Shown here piece by piece: positions 31,829 to 63,186 of a stretch of DNA of 64,000 nt (position 1 is its first letter; every line of letters begins with the position of its first letter). This DNA comes from Erodium maritimum (taxonomy: Eukaryota > Streptophyta > Magnoliopsida > Geraniales > Geraniaceae): contig OY997589.1 in assembly GCA_963921825.1 (NCBI GenBank), forward strand, positions 48,494,638-48,558,637. The letters run 5' to 3'. Made by a program: the position numbers and the translations under genes. The notes under the pieces were generated by a model. The model did not search any database, was not told where the DNA came from, and was given only the letters and a program-made list of their open reading frames with translations.

Positions 31829-31842
31829 TACAAAAGAATAAG
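31829..31842. repeat. LINE target-site duplication, left copy
   Basis: tacaaaagaataag, identical to 63173-63186. It is followed directly by a T run (31843-31851) that is the complement of the LINE poly(A) tail. Confidence 0.88.
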
Positions 31843-31929
31843 TTTTTTTTTAATAAATGTTGCGGATTTTCATTATAAACCATGGTTCACGGTACACTAG
31901 AGTACATTAGGTACATGACCTAACCACTG

Positions 31930-33876
31930 AAGAATAGGCATAGAACGGGCATCCCTGGCAAGCTAGTGGGATACCTTGTTCGCAGTTATTTTTACAAATT
32001 GGAGGGTAGTCCGTCTTTGTTGAGAAATAAGCTCCCAAATATCCTTGATGAATGTCCCAATGGGTTAAACTGGCGGGTCGCCTTTAGCTATTAGATTAAG
32101 AAGAATATGGGAGTCCGAGCAGATAATGATATTAGGCCCCAAGGTTGGGACATTTTTCAGGGCTGTCGCCAGAGCACAAGCTTCGACCATTAGTGGCTCC
32201 CAGATCCCCGGAAGAATCCCATTTGCGACCATTTTGACTGATCCGGTATGGTCCCTAGCAGTAAGACCCCAAGCCGATTGTTGTGTATCCTGAAAGACAG
32301 CCCCATCTACATTGATAACAATGGTACCAGAGGGCGGACGTGTCCACTTTTCCGACCAGACATGAGGTATATGATTTGTCTTCGGGGAGGTGGCCTTTGC
32401 CCCCTTCCAGGCCTTCAAGTGTGCAACCGCCGATGAAATAACCCTCAAAGATGGTGGGGGCGTCCCTCTCCACTTGACCTCATTTCGCGCTTTCCAGATT
32501 TCCCATAGAATGGAAAGGATCTCTGCCATCTTCTCCTGGGTTCTCCCGCTCTCAACACTCTCCCACCATTGTACAAATGTCCCACCAAGGCCTGGCGGGA
32601 TAAGATCACCCGTTTGTGCCCAACACGTCTTAGCAAAGCCACACTCGAGAAATAAATGATCAATTGATTCAGAAGCACTCCCACATATATCACAGGTCGC
32701 CGAGATTGGGACAAACTTGCAGGTGAGATTGGTAGATACTTGCAGAGTGTCCGTCAGGCTTCTCCACAGAAAGATCAATGAGCGAGGAGGAGCCGGAATA
32801 GACCACATCGCCGACCAAGTTACCAATGTCGTCTGTTGCCGTGCAGCCTGCCTCGCCACAACCAAGACCCTATACCTGGACTTTGTAGTGTACATCCCAT
32901 GGCGGTCATCCGCCCAGTACCAAGTGTCCTTAGGCTGGAGCGCCGAGAGGGGTACCTGAAGGATGTTATTCAGTTCCTCAATGGAAAATACTTGCCTCAA
33001 GTCGGCCTCATCCCAACATAGCTGCCCTGGTTGCATAAGCCCCGCCACCCGAGCCCCCACCAATGTCGGATCCGAAGATGTTACTTCCAGGTTCGGCCTA
33101 AACAACCATGGGGTGGCCAATACAAGAGTATCTCTGCCATCCCCAATCGTTATCCGAAGGCCGTTCCTAAGTAATTCCTTGGTTGATAGAATGCTCTCCC
33201 AGGTGAGACTCGGCGCCGAACCAACTCCTGCCTCAAGAAATGTAACCTTCAGGAAATAGCTGGCCTTAAGCACTCGGGCCATCAGGGAATTAGGGAGATA
33301 GATAAGACTTCAGGCTTGCTTTCCCAGGAGTGCCTTATTAACGTCGCGGAGATGACTGAATGCCATACCTTAGCCTCCTTTGGCATACACAACTTATCCC
33401 AGTCCTGCCAAATAATCGGGTGCGCCGTCTTCCCACCCCACCAAAACCGAGCCAACGCCACATGTATCCGAGCAATAATCCTGGCAGGTATGGTAAAGAC
33501 AAACATGGCATAAATGTGGAGAGAGGTCAAAACCGACCGAATCATTACCTCCCGACCTGTCGGCGAGAGAAGTTTCCCGTCCCATGACTAGATCCGCTTA
33601 ACAACCCTATCGCCCAGGTATGCCACGGAAACATTCCTATTTCTCCCGACCATGTTCGGAACGCCCAGGTTCATCGACGCCGCTGCAGTTTCAGCTATAT
33701 GAATAACATGGCAGCAGTGTTGTTTGAAGGCCGGTAATGTGTTCTTACTAAACATAATCGATGACTTTTCCAGATTCAGAACCTGCCCCGAAAGAGTCCC
33801 AAACATACCGAGGATATCCGTAATTGTCTGAGCGTCCTCTAGTGTTGGCCGGAAAAAGATATAACAGTGGTCTGCG
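31930..33876 (-). pseudogene. LINE ORF2 3' part: RT tail, zf-RVT, RNase H
   Basis: From 33876 downward the frame starts in the RT active-site region, FFAD then HCYIFF; a His replaces the second Asp of the FADD box. It continues through LSGQVLNLEKSS (33588-33806) and a long open frame 33282-32065. That frame holds the zf-RVT pattern (WSAMWSIPAPP, then CDICGSASESIDHLFLEC) and an RNase H domain with catalytic-type residues in VDGAVF, VEACAL and CSDSH. A stop at 32065 cuts the last part of RNase H, whose C-terminal sequence (about 32040-31930) is still recognisable. Frameshifts separate the open frames. Confidence 0.88.
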
Positions 33877-35463
33877 TGTTAGTCTTAGTGCCCGTAGTTC
33901 AATCCTAAATGTATAAATGTATATATCATCGTTAGCAATAAAATTAAAGCACCTTTATATTACTTATGTGTTGGAGTAATATATCGATGTGTGCTCTGAT
34001 CTATGCCCACAATGCGAATAGAACCATAGATCGAGAGAGATCACACTCGATGGGTCCCTAGTCAACAAAGCTTCACTAGAAACGACTAGTTTGAAAGACG
34101 GCTCTTTATGGCTTACGTTCTGTTATTCATTGGAATGGAATTCCGGAGTCTGATCATATATATCATGTGGGACATGATATTGGACGACCCACCCTGAATA
34201 TGTGACATAGATTAAGTCATGAACATATTCAGTATCGTAGCTTGTCATGTATCCTTAGACCAAGGAGTCTTTGTGATCGCTATGTAGTCAACAACTGAGT
34301 TTGACCTGAGCCTAACGTTGTCCGTAACAGGGCTTCCATAACGGCCAGGATTGGCTTGGGGACGGGCTACATGAGTGACACGAAATACGGCTAAGGGATT
34401 TATCCTTCATATTGAGGTATGGGAAAGATATCGGTTCTCGGCCGCTTGATCGAGAGTGACTGAAAGAATAGCATGACCATGCACATGATACTGGGTATCA
34501 TATATTCAGTCATCTCACATATCAAGGAACAGTGATTGAGAATAATAAGGATGACGGCTCTGTGCCTTATCTCAATCAGGATATCGGAGATAAAAGGATA
34601 ATGACAGGGACGACGGAAAGGTTAGAATCGACAGGGTCGATTTGTTATGCAGTGTCAGGCAATACTAAAGTCTCGTTAGTTGCCACTTATATAAGATCAA
34701 GTAAAATGGGATTTTACGTTGATCTATTGACATGCATAAACCTAAGGGTCACACCGGAGGATGAAACTCATTGACACATTTATGGAGAATGGACAAAAGG
34801 GAGTTGTCTCGGGACATGACCAAAACTGGGTTTTGGGTCATGTGCTCGTAAGTGAATAGGACTTTACGGATCAAGACAAGGCTTGGAGTCTTGTGATTGA
34901 TCGCGTTGGATAATGTTGGACATTTCCGGTATGGAAGGCTTGGAGGCGATGAGCGAATCACGGATCTCATTGGAAATGGTCGCGGGCCATGTTCCAAGAG
35001 GCCCATGAAAGGCCCATGCAACCAAGGCTCATGGAACTAATTAATCAAGTCTTGATTAATTAGTACTAAGTAAGGAAGACAAAGATTAAGGTTTTGGTTA
35101 TTCACCACCTAACCCAATCTTGTCTAGCCATACTTTGTCCTATTTACACCTTATTTGTCACCATGCTTGTCCCATGACTTTAGTTGGACAAGTATGGGGT
35201 TTGTTATGTTTAAGTCATCTTTTTTCAACATAACAAACACAAGACAAGAATAGAAAACACAACTTCTCTCCCTCTCTCCCTACAATTTCGGGTTTAGCAA
35301 GCTCCCACCTCCATTTGTGTGTTCTTGAGTCCTCAAAGAGAAGAACTACGTGGCATTGATTCCCATGTGGATACGTAGACGTCTTGGAGACTCAAGCCAA
35401 TCATTCGTTAACCGGTGTTCTTGTTTTGTTGCTTCATCTCCAACCCTACCTCGAGACCCAACA
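33877..35463 (+). mobile_element. Solo LTR of the same family as the younger copia element
   Basis: Starts tgttagtcttagtgcccgta, ends tcgagacccaaca, and is flanked by a perfect 5-bp duplication ctgcg (33872-33876, 35464-35468). It is the reverse-complement match of the LTRs at 47252-48939 and 54025-55712, but 1587 rather than 1688 bp. It has no internal region, so it is a product of LTR-LTR recombination. It interrupts the LINE right at its FADD box. Short open frames inside it are not genes. Confidence 0.93.
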
Positions 35464-35625
35464 CTGCGAAGAACATACGCGACCAAGATGATGGGCCAGG
35501 GACAGAAGGACTGGCCAGTGGTCCGATGTCGTCACTCTAATATTTCGAAGGAAGAGAAGAAAAAAGAGCATTCAATACTAATGCTCTATCCAACCGAGAT
35601 TGTATCCGCGCGTCATGCCTGCGGC
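35464..35625 (-). pseudogene. LINE endonuclease C-terminal piece
   Basis: The minus-strand reading continues the endonuclease started at 57900-58301, with residues such as RLDRAL spanning the hAT insertion site and SDHWPVLL-like sequence. It ends beside the solo LTR. It also contains the internal deletion junction that joins the endonuclease to the end of the reverse transcriptase. Confidence 0.7.
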
Positions 35626-36106
35626 TAGGGGTGGGCATCAACCGTGGCCCGACAATATTTTCATTATCCGTAACCCAAACCGGGAGGACCAGTTACTTGA
35701 AATCCATAACCGTCACCACACCGAGTTCCAACGGGAAACCTAAAAACCGACCGTCACGGAGTCGACCGATTACGTTTTTTAACCGACACATTGGGATTTC
35801 TTTTGGGCCCTTAATTAAAGCCCAAAATAGAAAAAAAAACATCAATTTCTAAAAGAACTAGAACAATAAAATCAATTTACAACAAAAATACAATCAGTTA
35901 TTACTAGTAATTGACTATTAACCTATTACATCAAGAAAAAACATTTTTAAAAAAGTCTTTAATGGTGTCTAAAAACAAAAATCTTCAAGTTAAATGCATG
36001 CCACAAATAATAAATAAAGATTAAAATGTATGTTTATTTAAGTACAGCGATTTAAATCCAAGTTCATTACAATCATATAAACTTTGAACTTTAAAATTGA
36101 ATGAAT

Positions 36107-36374
36107 TGTTATGAATATTTGTTGGATGACCACACTGAATATTCTAGATAGGAGTTACAAGACTTTTGTGGGAGTTACAAGACTTTTGTATTTTGAATTC
36201 TATTATTTATGTAGTTCATTAAGGTTATGTCTCTATGATTATGAGCCTATAAATAGAGATCATTATAAAGGATGAAGTGATCAATAATATGTTGTTTTCT
36301 ACTTTCTCCATATTCTCTTGTTCTCTCTAGTTTTTGTTCTTTCATTCACAAGTATCGTTCTTACTTTCATAACA
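36107..36374 (+). repeat. 5' LTR of the older copia element
   Basis: 268 bp, TG...CA ends, with a plausible TATA-like tataaatagag at about 36246. It is directly followed by the primer-binding region. Confidence 0.93.
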
Positions 36375-36392
36375 CGTTATCAGCACGAACGC
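36375..36392 (+). promoter_or_regulatory. Primer-binding site region, older copia element
   Basis: cgttatcagcacgaacgc lies directly after the LTR. It is not the usual initiator-Met complement (tggtatcagagc) used by the younger element in this window. I do not assign the priming tRNA. Confidence 0.55.
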
Positions 36393-36947
36393 TCAACTTT
36401 TGTAAGTATTTAAGCTTACTTTATTTCTTTTAAGTTTATTTGTGTTTATGTATATTCGATATGTGTAACCTGAAGTTTACACAAATCATGATACTTTGAA
36501 CACAAAGTTTTATAATCGTCAAGAAACAAGTCTCTTGAACCCGTCGTTCAAGTTGTGTTAAAATTGTGACCCGAAGTTCACATAAAGACCTGAAGTTCTA
36601 AATTGATGATTCCTGCAAGATAAAATCAAAGAAACTATTTTCAAGCTTCATCATACTATTTATAATCGATAATTCTCTTCTCTACATTTCTTCCATTTAT
36701 TATGTTCCTGAAGTAGCATTTCCAAGAATACAAATTCATTTACAACTGCGATAGTATGCTCTGTGATCGTCAATGAAACATTTGATCTTTCGCATCAGAA
36801 ATTTGATGTTTATTATATACTTGTATTTTATTGTTGATATTGAAATTTGAGGTTTGTTGAAACCGAGGCATTTGAACCTGAAGTTCCAAGATGCATATGT
36901 TTATAGTATGAAACTAATACAGTTTATATTCATTTTATAGCTTTACA

Positions 36948-37942
36948 ATGTCGAACCTTACAAAGCTAGAGTTCAATGCCTTGGACATTTCTGGAAAAAA
37001 TTATTTGGCTTGGATTCTTGATGCTGAAATCAACCTCAATGCCATGAACCTTGGAGATACCATAAAAGAAGAAAATACATCATCTGAACAAAATAAAGCA
37101 AAGGCCATGATATTCCTCCGTCATCATATCCACGAGGGATCGAAAACTGAATACATGGCGGTTAAGGATCCCGCAATCCTTTGGAAAGATTTAAAGGAAA
37201 GGTACGACCACCAAAAAACGGTGATACTTCCTAAAGCTCGTTTTGATTGGCTATACTTACGTTTGCAAGACTTTAAAAGCGTATGTGATTATAATTCCAC
37301 AATGTTTAGAATTACTTCTCAAATGAAATTGTGTGGAGAAAATATCACGATAAAGATATGTTGGAAAAGACTTTTTCCACATTTCATGCCTCGAATATGC
37401 TCATGCAGCAGCAATATCGTGAAAAAGGTTTTACAAAATATTCTAAGCATATTTCATGTCTACTTGTTGCTGAACAAAATAATGAGCTCTTGATGAAAAA
37501 TCACAACTCTCGCCCAACTGGATCAACACCATTCCCTGAAGCGAATGTTGTAACTAGTAATGAGTTTGAGTCTAATGAACAAAATTTCCGCGGACGTGGT
37601 CGTGGAGAAATTTATGGACGTGGCCGCGATCATCATAATCAACATCGGTCGAATCTCAAGAATAAAGCCCACAACCACCTGAAGTGGAAACCAAAAGAAA
37701 ACATGCCATTCAAGAAGACCGATAGTACTTGTCATAGATGTGGAGGAAAAGGTCATTGGAGTCGTACTTGTCGTACTCCAAAACACCTTGTTGAGCATTA
37801 TCAAGCATCACTTAAAGGTGTCGAGACGAAGTTCACTGAACAAAAGGATCCTATGGATTTTACCCATTTGGAGGTTGGAGATTTCTTTGAAGATACCAAT
37901 GGAGAATTCGACAAATTAATCAGTGATGGAAAGATGGCTTGA
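36948..37942 (+). pseudogene. copia gag, frameshifted
   Basis: Capsid-type sequence starts at 36948 (MSNLTKLEFNALDISGKNYL) and runs to about 37350, where the frame shifts by one base; it continues in the next frame to 37942. The second part has an Arg/Gly-rich tract and a CX2CX4HX4C zinc knuckle (CHRCGGKGHWSRTC, about 37730-37771). The break is a small indel near 37345. Confidence 0.9.
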
Positions 37943-38100
37943 GAAAATGATGATTTTATGTTTCTTAGAAATGTTTAAGTGTTTGAGTTTATGTTTAAGT
38001 TTTTATATGTTTAAGTGTGTTTCGTAATTTGGTATCTTTCATCAATAAAATATTTGGAGTGTCTTATTTCTAATTTTATTTATTTATCTTATGACGAACT

Positions 38101-39250
38101 ATGGACAAAAGTCTATCTAATTATATTAAAAGCAACGAGGAATCACTTTGCTTGGTGGATAGTGCGACAACACATACAATTTTGAGAGATAGAAAATATT
38201 TTTCACATCTCGTGTTAGCTAAAGCTAAAGTGAACACAATATCTGGGTCATCGGATCTTATTGAAGGCTCTAGAAGAGCCAATGTAATGTTACCAAATGG
38301 TACACATTTTATTATCAATGATGCAATGTTCTCAACTAGATCAAAAAGAAACTTGTTAAGTTTCAAGGATATTCGCCGACATGGTTATCACATTGAGACA
38401 ACTAATGAAAATGACGTTGAATATTTACACATCACGTCCATGGTCTCGGGGAGAAAAGAAATTATGGGAAAACTCCCTTCATATAATTCTGGATTATACT
38501 ATACTTTTATTAATCCAATTGAATCCAATATGGTGATTAACCAAAAACCAATGGACCCATCAAATTTTATGATATGACATGATCGTTTAGGCCATCCGGG
38601 TTCCATAATGATGTGAAGAATCATAGAAAATTCACATGGACATACCTTGAAGAGTAAAAATGTCCTTTTGTCAAAAGAATACCCATGTGTTGCTTGTTTT
38701 CAAGGAAGATTGATTACAAGACCATCTCCGATGAAAGTTGCGACTGAATGTCCAACATTTTTAGAAAGAATTCAAGGAGATATATGTGGACCTATTACCC
38801 CGAAAAGCGGGCCATTTCAGTACTTTATGGTACTTATTGATGCATCGACACGTTGGTCACATGTTTCTTTATTGTTCACTCGCAATGTTGCTTTTGCAAG
38901 GCTCCTTGCTCAAATAATTCGATTAAAAGCACATTTTCCAGACCATGCGATAAAGAATATCCGTCTGGACAATGCCGCGGAATTTACATCTCAATCATTT
39001 AACGATTATTGTATGTCAATTGGAATCATGATTGAAAACCCCGTGGCCCATACTCATACCCAAAACGGGTTAGCATAATCATTTATTAAGAGGCTAAAAT
39101 TGATTGTTAGGCCCTTACTTATGAAAACAAAGTTACCGAATTCTGCTTGGGGACATGCAATATTGCATGCTGCATCGTTAATACGAGTAAGGCCGACTGC
39201 ATATCACAAATTTTCCCCGATGCAGCTTGTCACTGGCCAAGAACCAAATT
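38101..39250 (+). pseudogene. copia protease and integrase, with stops
   Basis: The protease signature VDSATTH is at about 38155. A GAG-pre-integrase motif (HDRLGHPG) follows a TGA at 38575, and a second TGA follows MM at about 38614. The integrase core keeps its first two acidic residues (GDICGP; RLDNAAEF), but the third, the catalytic Glu position 36 residues after the second Asp, is a TAA at 39076-39078. The sequence ends in a short duplication where a foreign LTR piece begins. Confidence 0.9.
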
Positions 39251-39280
39251 TTCCCCGATGCAGCTTGTCACTGGCCAAGA
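39208..39280 (+). repeat. 35-bp direct duplication at the foreign LTR junction
   Basis: 39208-39242 and 39246-39280 are identical 35-mers (beginning aaattttccccgatgcagct) separated by 3 bp. Immediately after the second copy the sequence switches from copia integrase to the truncated long LTR. The duplication looks like a repair or rearrangement scar rather than an integrase-type target-site duplication. Confidence 0.85.
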
Positions 39281-40055
39281 CTTCCGCTCCCAGCTCTTCA
39301 AGCTTCGAGGGTTCTCCTAGTCCGCCTCACGACCAGTACTTGCAGGAAAAGTAGTAGGGGGTGAGCACTTCGCTCACCGCCACGGATACCGGATTGACCA
39401 TGGCATACCCACAGAAATACCGGGAACACCGGCAACAACAACAACCTCGGGGACTACTACCCCAAAAACACAATTTAGACTGACGGTCACGCAATACAAT
39501 TGTTAAAAACTTCCCAACCATCTCAAAACCCGGACACGTAATGTAGACCCCAAATCAGAGACCGAACAACCATTCCATTAGTCACAACGACAAGGTAAAG
39601 CACAACCCTCACACGATCCTATATGCATTTACTTGTAACTTTCCGCAACCAAACCAGTATTTGCTACTCGTCCCTACCTTAGAGGCCTGCGGGAAAAGTA
39701 GTAAAGGGGATGAGCGTTCCGCTCACCTCCACGGATACCCATCCGATTATGGCATACTAGTAAAGCATCAACAACTTACCAACCTAAACAGGGAAAACAA
39801 CTACCTCAAGACCTGATACCAAACCGTCACAACTGCTCACGATATCAATACCTCAAATACTCACTCACGTAAGGGAAACCTCGAATGGGGATCATATTCT
39901 CAACTAAGCAAAACAATATTGCTCACCATATCAACACCCCAATTACCCGGTCACGTAGGGGAAACCTCAAAACGGGGATCACGTTCTCAACTAAGCAAGT
40001 CACTATTGCTCACAATATCAATACCCCAACTACCCGATCACATAGGGGAAACCTC

Positions 40056-40288
40056 AAACAACCCACTCACGTGAGGGAAACGTCAAACAGCCCACTCACG
40101 TGAGGGAAACCTTAAACAACCCGTTCACGTGAGGGAAACCTCAAACAACCCTCTCACGTGAGGGAAACCTCAAACCACCCGTCCACGTGAGGGAAACCTC
40201 AAACAACCCGTTCACGTGAGGGAAACCTCAAACCACCCGTTCACGTGAGGGAAACATCAAACGACCCGCTCACGTGAGGGAAACCTCG
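40056..40288. repeat. 29-bp tandem array with a CACGTG in each unit
   Basis: Eight consecutive units of about 29 bp built on cacgtgagggaaacctcaaa plus a variable caacccgtt-like tail. Each unit contains the palindrome cacgtg. Degenerate units extend leftward to about 39880. It lies within the truncated long LTR. Confidence 0.88.
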
Positions 40289-40540
40289 CTCGTACAGCGC
40301 CGCAACGCATCAACCCTAACCCCTCTCCATGGTGAGACCCTGACACAGAGGCGTTGTATCACCACCGTAGGTTATTGACGAGTCTCGAACCCAAGACCTC
40401 ACCCTTTAACACAGAACTTACGACCTTTACAAACAAACACAATCGTGAACAAAGTCACGCAATATCAACAATATCAACACACACAATGCACGCAAGATCA
40501 CAAAGGATCAACACACATACTGCATAACCACAAGCCTCAG

Positions 40541-40767
40541 CACTTTACCGATCGCGCGCCGGAAGGTACGACACACCTCACGGGGACCACAACCCTCGAC
40601 ACTTTACCGATCGCGCATCGGAAGGTACGACACACCTCACGGGCACAAATCAAGCCTCAACACTTTACCAATCGCGCACCGGAAGGTACGACACACCTCA
40701 CGGGGACCACAACCCTCGGCACTTTACCGGTCGCGCATCGGAAGGTACGACACACCTCTCGGGCACA
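40541..40767. repeat. About 60-bp tandem repeats in the truncated LTR
   Basis: Units begin cactttaccgatcgcgc at 40541, 40600, 40661 and 40720 and contain ggaaggtacgacacacctc. Two more units follow at about 43418 and 43477, on the other side of the solo LTR. The solo LTR therefore landed inside this array. Confidence 0.88.
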
Positions 40768-40772
40768 ACTCA

Positions 40773-43404
40773 TGTAAGACCCGCTTCCGGTCGAACCGGT
40801 GACTCCGGAAGCCACTCGGGACTTTTCCGGAACCCAAACGGATTAGCCATTATCACGGTTGACTTCAGGGGAGAAAACCCTTTCGTTTGAGTATAATATT
40901 GGATAAAGTCAATTTTGGTCAAAACGAGACTTTATATCGACTAAAGCTTCTTTTTTAAAAGTGCTGGAAAGTAATTTGGAAAATTAAATGAGCTAGAGGG
41001 ACACTTGTCCTCTTTTGGTTGAAGGAGAGAAAAATGGATGGTCATTGTCCCTTTTACCCTCCCAAAAGCTACTACAAAGGAATCTAGCTCAAGGACCTTT
41101 AGGTCTTTACTTCTTCTAGGTATTATATTGGATTGGAGAAGCAAAATCAAGTCATTTTCTTCTTGTTGTAGCCGAAACTTGGAGAGGAAGAGAGGAAGAG
41201 GAGCTCTCATGGAAGCTTGAAGGAGAATCAAAGAAGAAGGAACCATTTGGAGTCATCCTCTAGCCTTCCACCCTCAAAACCACTAGCATCCTCTTCATCT
41301 TCACATTCTAGAGGTAATGGAACTCTCTACTCATCTTTCCTCTTCATCTATTTTCTTGGGTTTTGGGTGAAAAGTGCTAGATGATGTTGGGTTTGAGTAG
41401 AGATAGTGAGAGATGATGTTGATGATGAACCTTGTTGGATTTTGGTTGAGAAATCAATAGTTGTTGGAGATTTTGAGGTGGGTTTGAGTTGATGAATCCT
41501 TGGAAACTTGTTTGTGTGTTGATTCCTACCATGGGTAAAGGAGTATTGAAGGATTTGGACTGTTTTGGGAGTTGTAAGGGGTAAATTTCTGGGTTTAAGA
41601 GTGGTTTTTCGGAGTTTTGGAGCTGGAGGTTGAAGAAGGGCGAAACTGCCCTGGTGCGCCACGGATCCGTGACGGATCCCGTGACGGGCGACGTCACGGC
41701 TCCGTGAGGGAGTCCGTGACGGCACTCGTCACAGCTCCGTGACGGTAACCGTGAGGGTTAGCGTCACGGATCCGTGACCAGGTCCGTGACCCACCAGAGT
41801 GAGGGTTTCTTGGGGGTTTTTCGAAGTGTTTACACCTTGGTTTTGAGCTGAACTTTGGAAGGGTTTTGGGGGTCTTTCTTGCTGTTTAAGTGGAGCCTAA
41901 TTAGTGTTTCTTTGTGTCCAAGACCTTGGGGATCGAGCTAGAGAAGCAAGGATCACACCGAGGCCCGAGGGAAGAGCGAGGTGGTGATCACCGGACTTCA
42001 CCAAAGCGTTGAAGAGGAGGACCTTGAGGTAGGGAAAGCCTTAACCATCCATTTATGGTGCCTATTATGCATGATAAGTAATAAAATTGGAAAAGGTCCT
42101 AGACATGCATATAGGATGCGAATAACTAGCTTTATCGTCTTTCAATTGCTAATAACCTGAGAGTCTAGTGGTGACCGATTAGGATGCCAATCACTAGTGT
42201 AATTCGCTTTCAATACTTGGGATATGATTGTCTGGTAGAGGAGCCATGGCAAAGCCCTCGGATTAGTTGCGTGATAGGATCACATGCTTGGTTGTTGATT
42301 GCTTAGTAGATAGGCTAAAGAGTCTAATGAAACTAGCGAAATTGCATGCTTGAATGCTACTTTGAAGGCTTTATGTTTTGGTTGATCATACTCGCTTTTG
42401 CTCGTTGATTGTATTCGAATGATTACTTGATTTACTTGATTGGTTGTTGGGAGTATCGAGTATGACTGGCTGTGCCGAGCGGTGCAATCAGGTGATCGAT
42501 GCCCCGGTGGTTCGAAACTGGTAAGTGAACGGTAAGTTAGGATTGTGTATTTGGTGTGCTACGGTTGCGTGATTCGTGTGCTATGTGTTGTGGTGAATTG
42601 GTGATGGTTGAGCCGTGTGTGGACTTGGGTTGGTGGTTATTGAGTTTGTATTACTTCGAATTTCTGTTGAGTGCATTATTCAATTATTAACTGCTTATTA
42701 TGAAATTGCCCACGTGTGCGCTTCCTATGGGAGTATGGCCCTGGGCTCCCGATGACCTAAAATCCCTTGGAGACGTTTCTGAGACTTCCGATGATATGTG
42801 CCCAGAAGGGTGTTTCCGATAGTCTCAATGATATGCGTCTCCTCCGGATTGGAGGGAAAATCCGAGAGGACACGTAAGACGTGGATCGGAGGGTGGTGAC
42901 CTCATGTACCACGGCATTGTTTGGTTTATCTATTGTCTCCAATTGTTACGAACTTCTTGGTAACTTTATTAATGAATTTATTGGTGATGTTATGGACTAC
43001 CTTGTGGAATGTTCTGTGAATTGTGGATCTTGTGGCATTACCGTCGATTCTTTGGAGTTTAAGGTTCACTATGTTATGTGTTTTCCCTACTGAGCGTGAG
43101 CTCACCCCTATGTTTCACTGTTGTGTCTACAGGCTTGATTGAGGAGTAGAAGCTTGGGCGCTTCTCGGCGGGGTACTTATTAGAAACTTCGGACCTTACT
43201 GTTTATGTTTTGAACTAAACTGTGGAAATTATTATTATTACACCCCTTGAGGGTTATTTCATGTTTGAGCTACGTATTGATGGATTCGAGTTATGGTAAT
43301 GGAGTTTATGGATTTGATTTAGTTGGTTTTCTCCTTTATTCGTTTTTATTTTATTTTATAGTCATGCCTCGAGTCCGGGCAAGAACCGGATTTGGGGCGT
43401 GACA
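40773..43404 (+). mobile_element. 2.6-kb solo LTR, gypsy-like
   Basis: Starts tgtaagacccgcttccggtc, ends gatttggggcgtgaca, and is flanked by a perfect 5-bp duplication actca (40768-40772, 43405-43409). Near its 3' end it has the same gagcg..gctcacccct / gcttg layout as the LTR at 59758-62609, so the two are relatives. Frames inside (for example 41348-41725) have no recognisable domain. Confidence 0.9.
41655..41805. repeat. Palindromic cgtgacg/cgtcacg cluster in the solo LTR
   Basis: Within 150 bp the motif tccgtgac or its complement gtcacgg occurs about a dozen times (for example ggatccgtgacggatcccgt). The stretch is strongly self-complementary and GC-rich in an AT-rich setting. Confidence 0.8.
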
Positions 43405-43873
43405 ACTCAAGCCTCATCACTTTACCAATCACGCGTCGGAAGGTACGACACACCTCACGGGGAACACAACCCTCAGCACTTTACCGGTCGCGCATCGGAA
43501 GGTACGACACACCTCTCGGGCACAGCTCATCCATGTATCACCAGAACAATCACAATCACAACCAAATATCACACAATACTCCGCAAATAGCAAATTTAAC
43601 ATCACGACTAACTACCACTCAACAAGTCAGTCAACAACCATACAGGTTCAACACCTCACAGGCACTCATGGCCATACTGTGGAACCCTTTATCGATGGCA
43701 AGTCGACAGGCGGGCCAAAGCTCCATGCCAATCACACAAATCATACGAATGCTCAACAACCAGCGAAAATAACATAATGACTAGCTACCACTCAGCAAGT
43801 CAGTCAATAACCATACATGTTTAACACCCCACATCCACTCATGGCCACACACAACCACAATCAGTTCATTAAC

Positions 43874-44075
43874 CCTACGACACCACCAAGTGCCACATGC
43901 ATTTCTATTATTCGACAGGTTCACTCAACCTACGACACCACCAAGTGTCACATGCATTTCTACTATTCGACATGTTCACTCAACCTACGACACCACCAAG
44001 TGTCACATGCAGTTTTATTATTCGACAGGTTTACTTATCCTACGACACCAATAGTGTCACATGCATTTCTACTGA
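43874..44075. repeat. 55-bp tandem repeat, four units
   Basis: Units start cctacgacaccaccaagtg at 43874, 43929, 43984 and 44039, and include cacatgca and tattcgacaggttcac. The last unit is slightly degenerate. It lies within the truncated long LTR. Confidence 0.88.
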
Positions 44076-54011: not shown

Positions 54012-54023
54012 GCTCTGATACCA
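54012..54023 (-). promoter_or_regulatory. Primer-binding site, younger copia element
   Basis: tggtatcagagc on the minus strand, one base from the 5' LTR, is complementary to the 3' end of plant initiator methionine tRNA, the standard primer of Ty1/copia elements. Confidence 0.95.
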
Positions 54024-54024
54024 C

Positions 54025-55712
54025 TGTTGGGTCTCGAGGTAGGGTTGGAGATGAACCAACTCGCAGCGGAAAATCAATGAAAACCAAGAGACAATTAAAA
54101 CCATGAAACAACTAACAAAGAATGGATTAACAAGAGAAAAATTCAGCACTAGTTCTTACCAAAACAAGAACACCGGTTAACGAATGATTGGCTTGAGTCT
54201 CCAAGACGCCTACGTATCCACATGGGAATCAAAGCCACGTAGTTCTTCTCTTTGAGGACTCAAGAACACAAACATGGAGGTGGAAACTAGCCAAACCCGA
54301 AATGGCCATGGAAGAGGGAGAGAAAATGTGTTTCCTATTCTTGTCTTGTTTTTGTTATGTTGAAAAAAGATGACTTAAACATAACAAAACCCATACTTGT
54401 CCAACTAAAGGCATGAGACAAGTATGGTGTCAAGTAAGGTGTAAATAGGACAAAGTATGGCAAGACAAGATTGGGTTAGGTGGTGAATCACCAACACCTT
54501 AATCCTTGTCTTGCTTACTTAGTACTAATTAATCAAGACTTGATTAATTAGTTCAATGGGCCTTGGTTGCATGGGCCTTTCATGGGCCTCTTGGAACATG
54601 GCCCGTGGCCATTTCCAACGAGGTCCCGTGATTCGCTCATCGCCTCCATGCCTTCCATACCGGAAATGTCCAACATTATCCGACGCGATCAATCCCAAGA
54701 CTCCAAGCCTTGTCTCGATCTGTGAAGTCCTATTCACTTACGGGCACATGACCCAAAACCCAGTTTTGGTCATGTCCCGAGACAACTCCCTTTTGGCCAT
54801 TCTCCATAAATGTGTCAATGAGTTTCATCCTCCGGTGTGACCCTTAGGTTTATGCATGTCAATAGATCAATGTAAAATCCCATTTTACTTGATCCTATTT
54901 AAGTGGCAACTAACGAGACTTTAGTATTGCTTGACACTACATAACGAATCGACCCTGTCGATTCTAACCTTTCCGTCGTCCCTGTCATTATCCTTTTATC
55001 TCCGATATCCTGATTGAGATAAGGCATAGAGCCGTCATCCTTATTATTCTCAATCACCGTTCCTTGATATGTGAGATGACTGAAGATATGATACCCAGTA
55101 TCATGTGCATGGCCATGCTATTCTTCCAGTCACTCTCGATCAAGTGGCCGAGAACCGATATCTTTCCCATACCTTAGTATGAGGGATAAATCCCTTAGCC
55201 GTCTTTCGTGTCACTCATGTAGCCCGTCCCCAAGCCAATCCTGGCCGTTATGGAAGCCCTGTTACGGACAACGTTAGGCTCAGGTCAAACTCAGTTGTTG
55301 ACTACATAGCGATCACAAAGACTCTTTGGTCTAAGGATACATGACAAGCTACAACACTGAATATGTTCATGACTTAATCTATGGCACATATTCAGGGCGG
55401 GTCGTCCAATATCATGTCCCACATGATATCTATGATCAGACTCCGGAATCCCATTCCAATGACTAACAGAACGTAAGCCATAAAGAGCCATCTTTCATAC
55501 TAGTCGCTTCTAGTGAAGCTTTGTTGACTAGGGACCCATCGAGTGTGATCTATCTCGATCTATGGTTCTATTCGCATGGTGGGCATAGATCAGAGCACAC
55601 ATCGATATATTACTCCAACACATAAGTAATATAAAGCCGCTTTAATTTTATTGCTAACGATGATATATACATTTGGACATTTAGGATTGAACTACGGGCA
55701 CTAAGACTAACA
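54025..55712 (-). repeat. 5' LTR of the younger copia element
   Basis: 1688 bp, partner of 47252-48939. Ends are tgttgggtc...actaaca on the plus strand. Confidence 0.95.
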
Positions 55713-55824
55713 CTACTATACGTATTGTACAAATTATGTACTCTTTTTCCTTCTAATATTTTTCCCATTGAGTTTTTCTTAGAAATGTTTTAACGAGGCA
55801 TAATAATATATGTACATGTCATCC

Positions 55825-55834
55825 AAAGGGGGGG
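55825..55834 (+). promoter_or_regulatory. Polypurine tract, older copia element
   Basis: aaaggggggg immediately before the 3' LTR at 55835. Confidence 0.85.
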
Positions 55835-56102
55835 TGTTATGAATATTTGTTGGATGACCACATGGAATATTCTAGATAGGAGTTACAAGACTTTTGTGAG
55901 AGTTACAAGACTTTTGTATTTTGAATTCTATTATTTATGTAGTTCATTAAGGTTATGTGTCTATGATTATGAGTCTATAAATAGAGGTCATTGTAAAGGA
56001 TGAAGTGATCAATAATATTCTATTTTCTACTTTCTCCATATTCTCTTGTTCTCTCTAGTTTTTGTTCTTCCATTCACAAGTATCGTTCTTACTTTCATAA
56101 CA
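55835..56102 (+). repeat. 3' LTR of the older copia element
   Basis: 268 bp, same length as the 5' LTR with no length change. About 11 substitutions were counted by eye. Confidence 0.93.
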
Positions 56103-56285
56103 TAAATTCATTAATACATACTAGTGTCAACATTTAATTTATTTTAACTTGAATAACCAACTTACTACATGATTGTTTATAGGAAAATTTATGATTAAAA
56201 GTAAACTAATCTTCTATATTTACCTCAGTTACACTGTTAATCTAATACTAGTTTGAACATTTAATTTAAACCTCTTGTAATACTA

Positions 56286-57647
56286 GAGGAGAAATCTAAT
56301 ACAAACCATGTCTTAACCTAAGAACCGTGAGAACCAATCTAAGTCGTCTATTTTAAGAATGGAGGGATGAGATACAATTGAGTTGTTGACTGCAAAAAAA
56401 CAGTTTTTTTTAGTAAGTGAGAAGGACTTTTTAGTAAAACTATCATATTACTTTTTTTTACCAATTCACTAATTTAATTTTTCCACTGCGTTTGAACTCC
56501 GATTGGCTTCAAACTTGCGCCATTAGTTTTGTTTTTTCAAGGGTTTTCTATCGAGATCACTCATGAATATATTTTGAAGCATGATTTTTTTTTATTTTGG
56601 GGATGATTTAAAAAAAAAATTATACATGAGTAATTTTTATCAACACTTTGCTCTGGTTTTATCAACACTTTTACACTGGTTTTATCAACACTTTACACTG
56701 GTTTTATCACCTCATTTCCAAAACTGATCATGATTTTATCACATCATCACGTGCTTTTTATGAACCTTAGTTTTATCAACACCAAACACTAGGTTTATCA
56801 TTAAATTACATGTGTTTTATCACCCCCATCACTTGTTTTTTTGAAGCACGAAAAAAAGAATTATTTTGGGGCTGATTTTAAAAAAAATTATATCTGGGTA
56901 ATTTTTATCAACACTTTATATTGGTTTTATCAACACTATACACTGGTTGTATCAACACTGAACACTAGTTTTATAACCTCATTTTCCAAAACCGAACATG
57001 ATTTTTATCACCTCATCACGTGTTTTTATGAACACTAGTTTTATCAACACTAAACACTATGTTTATCATTAAATTACATGTGTTTTTATCACCCCATCAC
57101 ATGTTTTTTTATCAATGATAAACTCTAGTTTATCCCACTTATTATCAAAATTGAACATGATTTTTATCACCTCATTATTTGTTTTTTATCACCTTAGTAC
57201 ATGTTTTTATCAACATTTAGCACTAGTTTGATACCTCCGATATAAAACATTTATTAGTGAAGATTTATCAAAACTCAACATTATTTTTATCACCCCGATA
57301 TACCTTTTTATTTTTGTGCTTCAAAATATATTCGTGATTGATCTTGATTTAAAGACCTTGAAAAAATAAAAATATCGGCGCAAGTTTGAAGCTAATCGGA
57401 GTTCAAACGAATCAGAAAATATTAAATTAGTGAATTGGTGAAGAAAAAAAATGGACACTTGTCCACATGGCACCATGCTATTACAATTATGCCCTTACTT
57501 GTGTGAGAAAGGATGAATGTGGCGTGAATTTGAGTGGAATTAGGGTGATGATGTGGCATCATGGTGAATGTTGGATCTTAGGTGTGTGTGGCTAGGATTG
57601 GTTCTCACGGTTCTTAGGTTAGAGTGGTTTGTAGCCGATTTAACCTC
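56286..57647. mobile_element. Foldback MULE with internal satellite-like core
   Basis: 1362 bp. The outer ends are inverted (gagg..aaatc..tacaaacca, then taacctaagaaccgtgagaa). A second inverted block lies deeper (tttgaactccgattggcttc at 56491; its near-complement at about 57377-57407). Flanks carry a 10-bp direct repeat tgtaatacta (56276-56285, 57648-57657), in the Mutator size range. The core has no gene, only degenerate repeats. It sits in the hAT element. Confidence 0.8.
56625..57290. repeat. Degenerate short repeats in the MULE core
   Basis: The phrases tttatcaacactttacactg, ttttatcaccccatca and aacatgatttttatcacctc recur every 25-40 bp about twenty times, with two larger half-repeats around 56570 and 56850. 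Non-coding. Confidence 0.75.
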
Positions 57648-57899
57648 TGTAATACTATAACCATCAAATTAGTAAAACAAAACATAAACATTTTTATATA
57701 CACACCTAAATTCGGTCGGTCGGTTTTTTACAGGTTTGGAAGATAAAAAACCATACCCACCCAAAATGCTTCCGGGTTGGTATTTTTTTAACTGTAACCG
57801 TCGCCGGCAACACCGGTTCGGGTGATTTCGATGATGAGGATGACCGGTGACGGTCGGTTTTCGGTGATGGCCGGATATTTGCCCAGCCCTACCTGCGGC

Positions 57900-58301
57900 C
57901 CTTAAACCATGTATACTGGTGGCCCGTCATGGGGACATCTACTAGGCGGAGGTCATGCATCAGTGAGTTAAAATCGTCCATAAGGCTAATAGGTACGATC
58001 CCCCCGTAGTTTCGTCAGCATCCAGGATACCATTGAAGTCTCCTATAAGGATCCAGTTGGGGCTTGTTGGAGTATGGAGACTTCAAATCATTTTCCAGGT
58101 CCGGTGTCTCCTATCCCGTCGGGGCTCCCTATAGATTCCTATTAGCCTGAGGCCATCATGTCTTGGCACTACGACCTCAACATCAATATACCGGTCAGAG
58201 GAGGCCCTGAATGTCACCCCTGCACCCGACACCCAGAACAGAGCCAGGCATCTTTGGTTTGCCACGATCTCCGACCCCCTAACATAGGGGACACAAATAT
58301 G
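57900..58301 (-). pseudogene. LINE endonuclease, middle part
   Basis: The minus-strand frames contain GAGVTFRASSDRYIDVEVV and, after a shift near 58080, a GDFNGILDADE-like catalytic block of the endonuclease fold. The sequence continues across the hAT insertion into 35464-35625. Confidence 0.8.
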
Positions 58302-59464
58302 TAGGGTTGTGCAAAAAGTCTGAATAACCCGACCCACCCGAAAAAACGCTCGGCCCGCAGCCCGCTTTTTACAAATCCGTGGGTGTCGGATCGGATTTCG
58401 GGTCAAAAAAATCCTGATCCGCGTTTACTTGGACGGATTGCGGGTCTTGGATCAGGGATCCGCGGGTCATCCGATTTGCCCGCAACCCATTTTGTCTTCT
58501 GTTTTAAACTGTTAGATCTTGTAAGAGATGGACTTTCCTAATCTAATGATGTTGATGTAAACAAGTGGTGCTCTACTCACCACCCACATGTAGACCCATT
58601 ATCTCATTCGCCTATATATCACGATTGAGGCTCCCAACTCCCTAACCTTAATCCTCTTTCTTTTTAGTTTTGCCTCTCTCTCTTCTTTGCTTCTAGTTTT
58701 CAATTTTCTAAATCTTTGATTTTGTTTTTTGTTTCTCACTCCTTCTTCGAATCTTTCACTCGCTGGATGTGCTCCATCGGAAAATCTCCTCTTTCAGTTC
58801 AGATCCTGTTTGAATCGAAGTCATGTTTCTTCACCGGTTAATATCTTTACTAAGGTAATGGATTGTTTTTTTTCAATATTCTTTGCTGCTATTACCATGT
58901 GTTTGCTGGGACAAAAACACACTTAGTTAACATATTTTACAATAACAATCAGAGTTTTGGTATGGGATTTTATGTGAAGTAGATTAACTGGTAGTCTTTT
59001 TATACGTTTTTGTTTCATTAATTTTGTGTTCTAATATCTTCATTATAATTTTCTTATATTACAGGAACAATGATGAAAGGATGAGCAACAGACTCTTTGA
59101 ATAATTAATTATTGTAAAAGTGAACCTAAAGATATGTATGGATCTATAATATTAAGGACAATATTTGTATCGACCATCCGTTGAACATGATAACTAATTG
59201 GATTGAATATTAATTTGTATATTAAAACCTTGAACATTGGCATTCAAATGGACATGAAGGAAATTTAATTGCAAAAGGTACAAAACCGTATCATCAGATT
59301 TTGGAATGAGCTTTTTACCAGATCTAACAGTCCAGTGTTGAGGTTTGATCTGTGTAATTACGGGTTTCAGTTTTAGACCCGATCCGACCGAGATCCGATC
59401 AGATGGATCCGCACATGATACATCGGATTGATGGGTAGATTTGAAGTGGAATTGATCTGATCCG
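58302..59464. mobile_element. Insertion flanked by an 8-bp duplication, hAT-like
   Basis: LINE coding sequence is interrupted between 58301 and 59473 with an 8-bp direct repeat caaatatg on both sides (58294-58301, 59465-59472). The left end tagggttgtgcaaaaagtct has hAT-terminal character, but the right end (gatctgatccg) is not its inverse, so one end may be lost. gatccg/cgggtc-rich subterminal motifs occur on both sides. The interior has a c/t-rich leader-like part (58640-58860) and no recognisable transposase. Confidence 0.6.
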
Positions 59465-59472
59465 CAAATATG

Positions 59473-59757
59473 GTCCTGAAAGTCCAACGATCTGGACAAT
59501 AAGGCACAGTTCTGGGCATCCAATAACGTTTCCGAAAGGAACAAGAGATGGGGTCGATGATCATGAAACATCTGATTGAGTTGCTGCTTATGGAGCCCCG
59601 TACCCATCCCCCGACAGTTCCAAGAAAGAACTCGCAGATTCGGCTTCAAGCGTGACGACAAGTGTCTGAGACCCAGGTCCCAATTGCTATAGGAAGAATG
59701 CGCAGATGGAGCCGATGGGGATGAAGATTCCTGAGACGGAATATGGACCCTAGACGG
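59473..59757 (-). pseudogene. LINE endonuclease N-terminus
   Basis: The minus-strand frame reads NLRVLSWNCRGMGTGLHKQQ, then HRPHLLFLSETLLD, the start of the plant L1 ORF2 endonuclease with its catalytic-type Asn and Glu. The frame stays open beyond the insertion junction by chance, to 59194. Confidence 0.88.
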
Positions 59758-62609
59758 TGTAAGAACCACTCCCGGTCAACGCTAGTCAAATCTGCGAAAA
59801 ACGGGAAAATTTAAAATTTTTAAGCAGACACTTAAATGAACCTAAATTTGACCCCGAGGGTCATACCGGACTTAAGTTGACCCCGATATCGACCAAAGTG
59901 AGTTCCGGGGAACTCAGGGCAACTTTCTGACCAATTTGGGAAAGGTTTACTTTTTGCTCGAAAAGTCAACCGAGCGACGTTTTGGTCCATTCGAGGTTCT
60001 TTTTGGATCCAAAAATCTTAGTCGTTGTCACAGCGGTCTTAGTTGAGCTGTTTCCTTGTAGCCCGTGAAGTTTCGTAATTTCTTGGAAAAAGTACCCGTT
60101 CGGGGCCCGAGACGGCCGAATTTCGCGAATCTGATTGGAAAATATTTAGAAGATTTTTTCCAAAAAGGTGTGGGACCCACTTGCCACATGTCAAATATGT
60201 GGTGGTATTAGGTATTTTTGAAACAAGACAAGATGAGTGGTGTAGGGGGTTCGGCCATAGTGTGAATTTTAGGGCTTTTTAGAGAGAGAAAGAAGATAGA
60301 AGGAAGAGAGAAAAGGAGAGAAAAAGAGAAGAGGGTTGGGGGTTTTGCCACTATTCACGAGCATCAAACCGTTGGATCGTCTCAAAGCTAGAAGAATCAA
60401 GCTCACACCGTCATTCTCTACGGTGAGCATCTAACCGATTTTCGTTTTGTTAAGTTTGAAAGTTAGGCGGTTTGAAACTAGTAGTTTATGGTGGTGTTGA
60501 GGTGTGGGGCTCGTTGGAGACGTTTTGGAGCGAGATTGGGACGTTTTCCGGTGACCGAAGGCTCGGGGGAGCTCCGGCCACCGTGTAGGGTGGCTGGCCG
60601 GCCTTGTAGGGTGGCTGGCCGGAGCTAGGACCGGCCACCACCATGGTGGACCGGCCCAAAACCGGCCCTAGCCACCCACGACCAAAGGGGGTCGCATGGG
60701 GCCCACATGCTCGGGTATTCGGGTTTCGTGTTCGGGTGGTTTAGAACATTCCCCAAGTAATTAATCCACACCCGGATCGAAATTTGGAATTAAATTGTAA
60801 AAGTTGTAATTGACGGGTTTAGAAACTTTAAACGCGAATTAAATTACTCGGAAGTCGGAATTTGATTCCGTCAAGTGCATAGGAACTCTTGAATTATTCT
60901 AAGACTGTAGAAACGAAAACGGGAATTTTCGGAGCCCCGGAAGGGCGTTTTCAAAACCCGGGCAGATTCGCCATGTCGGGCGAATCGGGCCTTTCCGAGT
61001 CCATTATCGACAATGTCGAGTAATTGGGAAGTTTGGGAGTGATCGACATTGTCGGGGTTACTTTTGGGCGTCAAGTTTATTAAATTTCAGTTTATGCCTG
61101 CAAGCTTAAAAGGGTTTTAAATTTGTGTTCTTATTAGATCGTGCCACCAACAGAGGAAAGGGAAAGCTAGGCGAGTGATCGAGATCACGCCGGAACTTGA
61201 TTGTGAGCTTTTGGAGAAAGCATACGAGGTAGGGAAAAGTAGCCGGATCTCGGCCCTGACTAGGGAAAGTTAACTGTAGAAATGCATGTGATACTTGGGT
61301 GTCGTGGGTTAAGTACGTTTGAACTTATTGATATTAGAATTACTGGAGGCATTTGGTTATGCCCGGAGGTTGATTTGTTTAGTTTGTGTCTTGGGTGGCC
61401 ATGAGAGCCCGTACTTTACTGTTGGTGTGTCTTGGGTGACCATGAGTGCCCGTGGGGTTGTTGAACCCGTGTCTTTACTGTTGGTGTATCTTGGGTGGCC
61501 ATGAGTGCCCGTGGGGTTGTTGAACCCGTGTCTTTACTGTTGGTGTGTCTTGGGTGGCCATGAGTGCCCGTGGGGTTGTTGAACCCGTGTTGTTACTGTT
61601 GGTGTGTCTTGGGTGGCCATGAGTGCCCATGGGGTTGTTGAACCCATGTCTTTACTATTGATGTCTTGGGTGGCCATGAGTGCCCGTGGGGTTGTTGAAC
61701 CCGTGTTTTACTGTTGGTGTCTTGGGTGGCCATGAGTGCCGATGGAGTGTTGAACCTGTGTTGTTGCTGGTTGTTGAACTTTGTTTGTGATTGTGATTGC
61801 GTGGAGGTTGGCTGGCTTGCCTGACAGGATCGGTAAAGTTGAGCATTCTTTGGCTAGCCTTGCCTGACAGGGATCGGTAAGGTTGAGCATTCTTCGGCGA
61901 TGGAGGGTTGCTCCCCTTCCGACTAGCTATCGGAAAACTAGCTCGGTACATATCGCTAACAGGTCGACCGCCTGGCCTGACAGGGATCGGTAAAGTTGCG
62001 TGGGGCAGGCTCGAGCCCAGCCGGTTAGCAACCGGCACTGAGCAGCTGGAGTGCGATCCTTTGTGATCTTGTTTGGTGTGCGATCCTTTGTGATCTTGGG
62101 TGTTGCGTGGTTGTCTTTTGTGTCTTTTGTGGAGGTCATAACCGCTGTGTCGGGTCTACATTACGTGTCCGGGTGTTGAGTCAGTTGAGGAAAGTAACAG
62201 TTCGTGTGTCCGTCGGGTTACTTGAGTTGGGGAATAGTAGTCCCCGGTGTTGGATTGTTGTTGGTGTTACCGACATTGTCTGCTAGTATGCCGTAGTCAT
62301 TCTGTTATCAGTGCTGGTGAGCGAACGCTCACCCCTAGCTGCTTTTCCTACAGGTACTGGTCGCGGGACGGACTAGGTGAGCTCTCGAAGCTTGAAGAGA
62401 TAGGAGCGGGAGTCCGGGTTTCCTTTTGAGTCTAGCGACGTATGCCTTGTATTTTGTCCGCTTGTTGGGACGTACTTTTGAGTTGTAAATTATTATTTTG
62501 ATTAACTAAATGGTGGTTTTAAAGTGATTTATTTAAAAGGTTTGAAAATGTTTTATTGTCTTAAACGTTCGCGTTCCGAGTTCGGTTTTACTGAAATTGG
62601 GGCGTGACA
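59758..62609 (+). mobile_element. 2.85-kb solo LTR, gypsy-like
   Basis: Starts tgtaagaaccactcccggtc, ends aaattggggcgtgaca, and is flanked by a perfect 5-bp duplication gacgg (59753-59757, 62610-62614). It carries a g/a-rich block at 60280-60345 and a tandem array. No primer-binding site, gag or pol follows, so it is a solo LTR. It is homologous to the inverted piece at 39281-45495 and more distantly to 40773-43404. Assignment to the gypsy superfamily rests on LTR length and ends only. Confidence 0.88.
61391..61760. repeat. About 59-bp tandem repeat, seven units
   Basis: Units contain cttgggtggccatgagtgcc then cgtggggttgttgaacccgt then ctttactgttggtgt. Unit starts at 61391, 61432, 61491, 61550, 61609, 61665 and 61721 show length changes between units. 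Confidence 0.88.
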
Positions 62610-62614
62610 GACGG

Positions 62615-63172
62615 TGACCATCCTTTGGATCCAATCTCATCCAACCCCACATCTGCGATAGACACACGCTGTCCAATATCCCGGGGCAGTGGCACGGGTT
62701 GGGGCGAGGGTCCTAATTCCGGCGACACCCTCCCGTTCCCCAACAAGGTGGAATGACGTGGTGTGGACCGAGCTCGTTTAGAGGAGTGAGATCGCCGGCG
62801 AGAGCCGGATACAGATTTCCCAGACCCAATATGTCCCAATCAGGGTGCCCGCGAATTTGGTGAGGCAAGAATCGGTGGGAGACAGCCAATAACCGGGGCC
62901 GAGATCGTACTATCCAAGGGTGGAGCAGGTAGGTCCAGCGTCACTAACATTGGCCCACCCCCCGGATTGATGATTCTGAGAAGACCACATCCGCCTGGGC
63001 GGTTGCAGACAACGACGTCGATCCGAGAAGGAGGTATGGGACCCAATCTAGTACAACCCACAAGCCAGAGAAGTCGACGAGGGAAGGGTCGAGGGTGGGC
63101 GGTCCGAGGGAGATGGAATCATACCGGACCGTCGCCGGAAGGAAAGGTATTGATGTTGACGGCATAAATCTT
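62615..63172 (-). pseudogene. 5' end of the truncated LINE, ORF1-tail-like
   Basis: Minus-strand frames (63165-62944, 63061-62840, 62839-62588) are Pro/Ser-rich with basic stretches, like the tail of L1 ORF1 ahead of ORF2; frameshifts separate them. The piece starts abruptly beside the 14-bp duplication, as in 5' truncation. No zinc knuckle was identified. Confidence 0.55.
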
Positions 63173-63186
63173 TACAAAAGAATAAG
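63173..63186. repeat. LINE target-site duplication, right copy
   Basis: tacaaaagaataag, identical to 31829-31842. Confidence 0.88.

What the first reader, a model, noticed from the sequence alone, without database searches (positions are those of the whole stretch)
31829..63186. A single LINE insertion carries a five-layer transposon nest resolvable to the base
A 14-bp duplication (tacaaaagaataag) encloses 31 kb. Inside, separate elements each have their own duplication: ctgcg, cctgcggc, tgaat/taaat, actca, ctact, tgtaatacta, gacgg, caaatatg. Removing them in order leaves about 3.4 kb of collinear LINE. The order LINE > hAT > copia > long LTR > solo LTR is a dated record of activity by at least four transposon classes.
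Basis: seen in the sequence. Interest (0 to 1): 0.8.

Follow-up and report, generated by a model that had tools for sequence, protein, structure and literature searches.

The report
Nested transposons inside one plant LINE
A 31-kb block of plant DNA is one old, damaged jumping gene into which eight other elements and one repair patch were later inserted; the nest is real and readable to the base, but nests like it are ordinary in plants.

Summary
A minus-strand plant L1-type LINE (31843-63172, 14-bp duplication) was split by four direct insertions, one of which, a small hAT, holds a copia element with further insertions. Five LINE pieces (3,436 bp in all) are collinear: six relatives elsewhere in the genome match the pieces in order, with one target copy where the window has an insertion.

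Three corrections. (1) The LINE is not whole: a 1.3-kb internal deletion not seen in relatives (2-bp microhomology, 17 bp from a solo-LTR site) and about 40 bp off its 5' end. (2) The fourth layer of the deepest chain ("long LTR") has no duplication. It is an LTR fragment lacking both ends, replacing about 730 bp of copia, with a templated repeat at one junction: probably a break-repair patch, not a transposition. (3) The right "caaatatg" is not a plain duplication: relatives run on 64 bp to the true hAT end, so the end was lost, probably between two identical 8-mers.

Only two layers can be dated: copia LTRs differ at 11 of 268 sites, those of the inner copia-type element at 0 of 1,688; the order agrees. 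Nests of up to 8 layers are published (wheat 3B). Ordinary in kind; low interest.

The parts
31829..31842 (.). Left 14-bp duplication of the LINE (tacaaaagaataag)
63173..63186 (.). Right 14-bp duplication of the LINE
31843..33876 (-). LINE piece P1 (3' part: end of RT, zf-RVT, RVT_3, poly-A); includes one ctgcg copy
   Evidence: Pfam zf-RVT 1.3e-15 and RVT_3 4.4e-07; 88-89% to two full copies
33877..35463 (+). Solo LTR A, TSD ctgcg, same family as the copia 2 LTR (about 95%), opposite orientation to copia 2
35464..35625 (-). LINE piece P2 (end of endonuclease region), with one copy each of ctgcg and cctgcggc; carries the junction of the 1.3-kb internal deletion about 17 bp from solo LTR A
35626..57891 (.). 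Non-autonomous hAT, about 893 bp without inserts, TSD cctgcggc
   Evidence: two relatives with exact 8-bp TSDs and the same ends
36107..56102 (+). Copia-type element 1 inside the hAT; LTRs 36107-36374 and 55835-56102 (K2P 0.042); TSD tgaat/taaat
39245..39280 (+). Second copy (36 of 38 bases) of a templated tandem repeat of the copia edge, array 39207-39280
39279..45496 (.). LTR fragment (gypsy-type by recall) without either LTR end and without TSD, in reverse to the LTR at 59758, replacing about 730 bp of copia 1; read as a break-repair patch
40773..43404 (.). Solo LTR (TGTAAGACCC...GCGTGACA), TSD actca, inside the patch (deepest layer)
   Evidence: unbroken site 43/46 in the one relative examined
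47252..55712 (-). Copia-type element 2 inside copia 1; LTRs 1,688 bp each, identical; interior pol broken; TSD ctact
56286..57647 (.). MULE-like non-autonomous element inside the hAT, about 54-bp TIRs, 10-bp TSD tgtaatacta
   Evidence: empty site in 2 of 2 hAT relatives
57900..58301 (-). LINE piece P3 (endonuclease by eye)
58302..59464 (.). hAT2: non-autonomous hAT with left end and left TSD caaatatg intact, right terminal 64 bp lost
59465..59757 (-). LINE piece P4 (start of endonuclease by eye)
59758..62609 (.). Solo LTR (gypsy-type by recall), TSD gacgg
   Evidence: empty site in 7 of 8 LINE relatives
62610..63172 (-). LINE piece P5 (5' region, about 40 bp short of the 5' end of relatives), with one gacgg copy

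Best explanation
One L1-type LINE inserted on the minus strand by target-primed reverse transcription (14-bp duplication). It later took four direct insertions: solo LTR A, a small hAT, hAT2, and another solo LTR. The small hAT took a copia element and a MULE-like element. The copia element took a second copia-type element and, separately, suffered a break that was repaired with a 3.6-kb piece of another LTR; that piece later took a solo LTR. Two further losses by end joining are visible: 1.3 kb inside the LINE (2-bp microhomology) and 64 bp at the right end of hAT2 (8-bp identity between the duplication and an internal motif). Shown: edges, collinearity, empty sites, missing segments, LTR identities. 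Inferred: the insertion and repair mechanisms, the relative order of sibling insertions, and absolute ages. The confidence given is for the nest and its collinearity; for the patch as one repair event it is about 0.7.
For: LINE pieces P1, P3 and P5 searched apart hit the same loci. In the six copies mapped piece by piece, P5, P4, P3 and P2 lie in order on one strand and abut, apart from those copies' own changes; P1 follows at 1,439-1,503 bp in 17 of the 21 relatives that could be paired. Empty sites: gacgg 7 of 8, caaatatg 7 of 8, cctgcggc 8 of 8, ctgcg 2 of 8 loci; taaat and tgtaatacta in 2 of 2 hAT relatives; actca in the one LTR relative examined. Deletion: the 1.3-kb segment occurs in whole or part in 18 of 20 relatives and gave no match in the window. 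Patch: 38 of 39 copia relatives stop matching at 39249, 38 of 41 match rows start at 45501, and 29 of 39 have 720-734 bp between. Dating order: copia 1 LTRs 11 differences in 268, copia 2 LTRs 0 in 1,688.
Against: The LINE's own empty 14-bp site was not seen. At the ctgcg site only 2 of 8 loci gave the right match (40 and 39 of 55), the 5' half being altered by the deletion. Nine of 39 copia relatives had no listed partner on the other side and one had 4,010 bp between. 18 of 39 P3 relatives had no listed P1 match, as only 40 of 909 candidates were scored. The L1 target motif is not evident at the nick (AATAAG|GTTTTT, + strand) by the recalled consensus TTTT/AA.
Confidence: 0.93

Rival explanations
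1. Layer 4 was an ordinary LTR-element insertion that became a solo LTR and then lost both ends, with flanking copia, through two separate deletions.
For: Both missing parts are LTR ends (about 197 and about 37 bp); two solo LTRs with duplications and of similar type lie in the same nest.
Against: Needs two independent deletions, each crossing an LTR end into copia; the templated repeat at the left junction and the single about 730-bp copia gap fit one repair event better.
Confidence: 0.25
2. The five LINE pieces come from different LINE copies brought together by chance.
For: LINE copies are numerous (909 first-look candidates), and identity to one relative differs among pieces (about 79-88% to the C4 copy).
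Against: Pieces abut in the same relatives with the target sequence present once.
Confidence: 0.01
3. hAT2 is a complete element with an aberrant right end and a true 8-bp duplication caaatatg on both sides.
For: The duplication is perfect and of hAT size; LINE relatives hold one copy of the motif or a variant.
Against: All seven near-full relatives run on past this point (CAAATATG, CAGATATG or a variant), and in five of seven the script found the end 64 bp further on with ...CCCTA and an exact 8-bp TSD. The 8 bases after the break are the same in the two 95% relatives; for a duplication that would be a chance match of about 1 in 65,536.
Confidence: 0.06

Closest known systems
Nested transposon clusters of plant genomes (wheat 3B: 30,199 nested insertions, up to 8 layers, PMC4290129, passages read)
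   Same: Younger elements inside older ones, resolvable by boundaries; several classes mixed
   Different: Here the outermost element is a LINE and one layer looks like a repair patch; no deeper than that published case
Nest-resolving methods such as REANNOTATE (PMC2672092, abstract and outline read)
   Same: Defragment, order, and date by LTR divergence, as done here by hand
   Different: Here relatives were used to test empty sites, which exposed two false boundaries
Break repair with deletions and filler DNA around DNA transposons in rice (PMC4423477, abstract and passages read)
   Same: Deletions, microhomology and filler at breaks
   Different: Fillers there were 1-123 bp; here the patch is about 3.6 kb of LTR in a copia element, and no excision was shown

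Membership tests
Plant L1-type LINE | RT-linked zinc-binding domain and RNase H-like domain near the 3' end | tested here: met
   zf-RVT 1.3e-15, RVT_3 4.4e-07
Plant L1-type LINE | Endonuclease upstream of RT | tested here: inconclusive
Plant L1-type LINE | Poly-A end and variable-length target duplication | tested here: met
   run of 9 T at 31843 on the + strand beside a 14-bp TSD
hAT (35626-57891) | 8-bp TSD and family-wide ends | tested here: met
   cctgcggc; 34 of 39 relatives scored start at its first base; two relatives with exact 8-bp TSDs
hAT (35626-57891) | hAT transposase | tested here: not met
   about 893 bp, no frame of 120 aa or more in its pieces: non-autonomous only
hAT (58302-59464) | 8-bp TSD and both ends | tested here: not met
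   right 64 bp lost in this copy; 5 of 7 relatives meet it by script
Ty1/copia LTR retrotransposon (36107-56102) | RVT_2, copia-type gag, integrase, LTR pair with TG...CA | tested here: met
   RVT_2 5.1e-56 and Pol_BBD above cut-off; gag_2 (23.7 of 27 bits) and rve (31.9 of 32.6) below the curated cut-off; LTRs
Ty1/copia LTR retrotransposon (47252-55712) | RVT_2, integrase, LTR pair, 5-bp TSD | tested here: met
   RVT_2 4.3e-25, rve 1.1e-08; LTR pair and ctact
Ty3/gypsy (patch 39279-45496 and the LTRs 40773-43404, 59758-62609) | gypsy-order pol between LTRs | not tested
   Only LTR sequence is present; 'gypsy-type' rests on the look of the LTR and is recalled, not tested
MULE (Mutator-like), 56286-57647 | TSD of about 9-11 bp, terminal inverted repeats starting GAG | tested here: met
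   10-bp TSD, 54-bp TIRs at 85%; with the edges allowed to shift by up to 8 bp, 9 and 10 bp TSDs in L078 and L079, 8 bp in L075 and L077, none in L076
MULE (Mutator-like), 56286-57647 | MuDR-type transposase | tested here: not met
   1.36 kb, no frame of 120 aa or more: non-autonomous only

The most novel reading that the evidence does not exclude
hAT2 did not lose its end after insertion but was inserted one-ended: the left end was joined by transposase and the right junction was guided by an 8-bp identity between its subterminal motif and the target. If so, apparent perfect hAT duplications can come from microhomology capture and mislead automated annotation.
Probability: 0.08. Interest if true: 0.4.

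Novelty: new member of a known kind. Interest (0 to 1): 0.2.

Why it matters
It is a well-resolved worked example, not a new kind. Its use is methodological: two of the features that a reader, or a tool that trusts duplications, would take as clean insertions (hAT2's right edge and the 'long LTR' layer) look like repair scars, and this showed only when relatives' empty sites were compared. It also shows how plant break repair can reshape a nest besides transposition.

Tried and rejected
Empty 14-bp site by paralogy: the right flank 63187-63660 has no second match in the genome (the tool warns that this does not prove it rare; the left flank was not searched). The exact 14-mer occurs 19 times, about as often as its reversed control, 17, so it is not telling alone. 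L1 target motif: not evident, not pursued. TSDs of the full-length LINE relatives: an 8-base match (GTGTCTAA) for the C4 copy, none for the C2 copy. A possible strand bias of copia 2 copies (36 of 39 relatives on +) was set aside: only 40 of 1,327 candidates were scored and ties may be ordered by strand. The C6:61.34 Mb LINE copy seemed to share the internal deletion (extrapolated distance 310 bp), but its segment is present (L014). The species was not identified. Papers: search listings; only PMC4290129, PMC2672092 and PMC4423477 were opened, as stated.

Full report
What is there. A NO VEIN C-terminal domain in its left half (Pfam NOV_C) points to a plant; that this family is a plant one is recalled. 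The LINE runs on the minus strand from its poly-A at 31843 to its 5' end at 63172, between 14-bp duplications.

Is it one LINE? Three pieces were searched separately against the whole genome. P3 (57900-58301) gave 40 matches with 40 of 176 candidates scored, P5 (62615-63172) 24 match rows from 21 candidates, all scored, P1 (31843-33876) 44 rows with 40 of 909 candidates scored. High-ranking places coincide: C2 33.57, C4 49.59, C8 48.82, C7 32.68, C1 53.16 and C3 66.48 Mb. In these six copies P5, P4, P3 and P2 follow each other on one strand and abut. Exceptions look like the relatives' own changes: in C3 P3 is split by about 0.9 kb, in C2 some 40 bp at the P4/P3 joint are missing or unlike, in C8 a few bases there, and in C1 P2 is matched only from base 40. 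P1 was read directly in the C4 and C2 copies and in part (193 bp) in C1; for C8, C7 and, in part, C3 it rests on coordinates. Joined 52-55-base flanks find the unoccupied site in 7 of 8 (gacgg), 7 of 8 (caaatatg), 8 of 8 (cctgcggc) and 2 of 8 (ctgcg) loci. The misses are L022 (not aligned so far 5'), L018 (its own change at the site) and, for ctgcg, six loci; of these, L017 and L018 show the one-copy site at their very end.

What the LINE lacks. In 17 of the 21 relatives that could be paired, P3 and P1 are 1,439-1,503 bp apart; the window has about 149 bp. The other four are 310 (extrapolated from a partial match), 3,756, 6,395 and 7,134; 18 of 39 could not be paired. The missing segment was found in whole or part in 18 of 20 relatives (16 over 1.1 kb or more) and not in the window; L011 and L020 gave no match. 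By eye the junction shares 2 bp (TC) with both sides and lies about 17 bp from solo LTR A. The 5' end is about 40 bp short of the start shared by the C4, C2 and C7 copies (by eye). The full C4 copy is about 4.74 kb by coordinates.

hAT and what lies in it. The small hAT has family-wide ends: 34 of the 39 relatives scored (of 411 candidates) start at its first base, and two read in full are 0.88-0.89 kb with exact 8-bp duplications. Its three pieces are collinear in both. Those two read taaat at the copia site, so the left tgaat is probably a later change. The MULE-like element has 54-bp TIRs, 5,286 first-look candidates and duplications of 8-10 bp in 4 of 5 relatives read, with small shifts of the edges allowed.

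The layer without a duplication. Copia 1 relatives match up to 39249 (38 of 39; 40 of 763 candidates scored) and resume at 45501 (38 of 41 rows; 40 of 731 candidates scored); 29 of 39 have 720-734 bp of copia between, one has 4,010 and nine were unpaired. In the window that stretch is replaced by a templated tandem repeat of the copia edge (39207-39280, period 38) and a reversed LTR fragment. In one search the rows that reach this side mostly end at 45495-45497, some at 45481-45484. One relative read at both sides shows about 197 bp and about 37 bp of LTR beyond the fragment's ends, the LTR edges being placed by likeness to the LTR at 59758-62609, and an unbroken actca site (43 of 46; a second repeat unit gives 42) where the window has the inner solo LTR. 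I read this as a break repaired with a captured LTR piece. The deepest chain is thus LINE > hAT > copia 1 > patch > solo LTR: five layers, four of them transpositions. The label gypsy-type for these LTRs is recalled, not tested.

The false duplication. hAT2 (58302-59464) was searched whole (all 25 candidates scored). In all seven near-full relatives the sequence runs on past the window's right edge (CAAATATG, CAGATATG or a variant); in five of seven the element ends 64 bp later at ...CCCTA with an exact 8-bp duplication. By eye a sixth (L073) also agrees after a 2-base shift; L072, whose left end does not match, does not. So the window's right caaatatg is both the target and an element motif, and 64 bp were lost between them. 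An 8-bp duplication left of an intact end is what hAT insertion gives, so I favour deletion after insertion.

Dating. Copia 1 LTRs differ at 11 of 268 sites (K2P 0.042; 1.6-3.0 My with recalled rates of 1.3e-8 and 7e-9); copia 2 LTRs at 0 of 1,688. The inner element is younger, as nesting requires. Copia 2 has 93-99 stops per frame in its 5.1-kb interior, part of it non-coding, with pol split over several open frames; yet the 39 other copies listed are 99% identical over 1,312 bp of it (40 of 1,327 candidates scored). This fits a recent burst of a defective family, presumably mobilised in trans. Solo LTR A is about 5% diverged from its LTR. No other layer carries a clock.

Known or new. Nests of up to 8 layers are published, their computer ordering and dating since at least 2008, and deletion with filler around transposons is documented. 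The locus is a new instance of a known kind.

Noticed in passing
window 47252-55712: Copia-type element with identical 1,688-bp LTRs but a broken interior; 39 further copies listed at 99% over 1,312 bp of the interior (40 of 1,327 candidates scored): looks like a recent burst of a non-autonomous family.
   Followed up: partly
window 33877-35480: The 1.3-kb LINE deletion ends only about 17 bp from the solo LTR A insertion site; whether the two events are linked is open.
   Followed up: partly
window 56592-57110: The MULE-like element holds a 268-bp tandem duplication rich in 'TTTTATCAACACTTTACACTGG' units.
   Followed up: no
window 63187-64000: The nest ends a few hundred bases upstream of what may be a gene start (ATG at 63526, guessed by eye), followed by another repeat-like stretch.
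   Followed up: no
window 11172-20474: Minus-strand open frames, one with a NO VEIN C-terminal domain (Pfam NOV_C 8.3e-23); a ceramidase-like frame at 6488-7012 (1.7e-30).
   Followed up: partly
LINE relatives L012, L017, L018: The full-length C4 relative is only about 4.7 kb, with roughly 0.7 kb before the endonuclease (by eye), so a usual-sized ORF1 seems absent or reduced in this LINE family.
   Followed up: no
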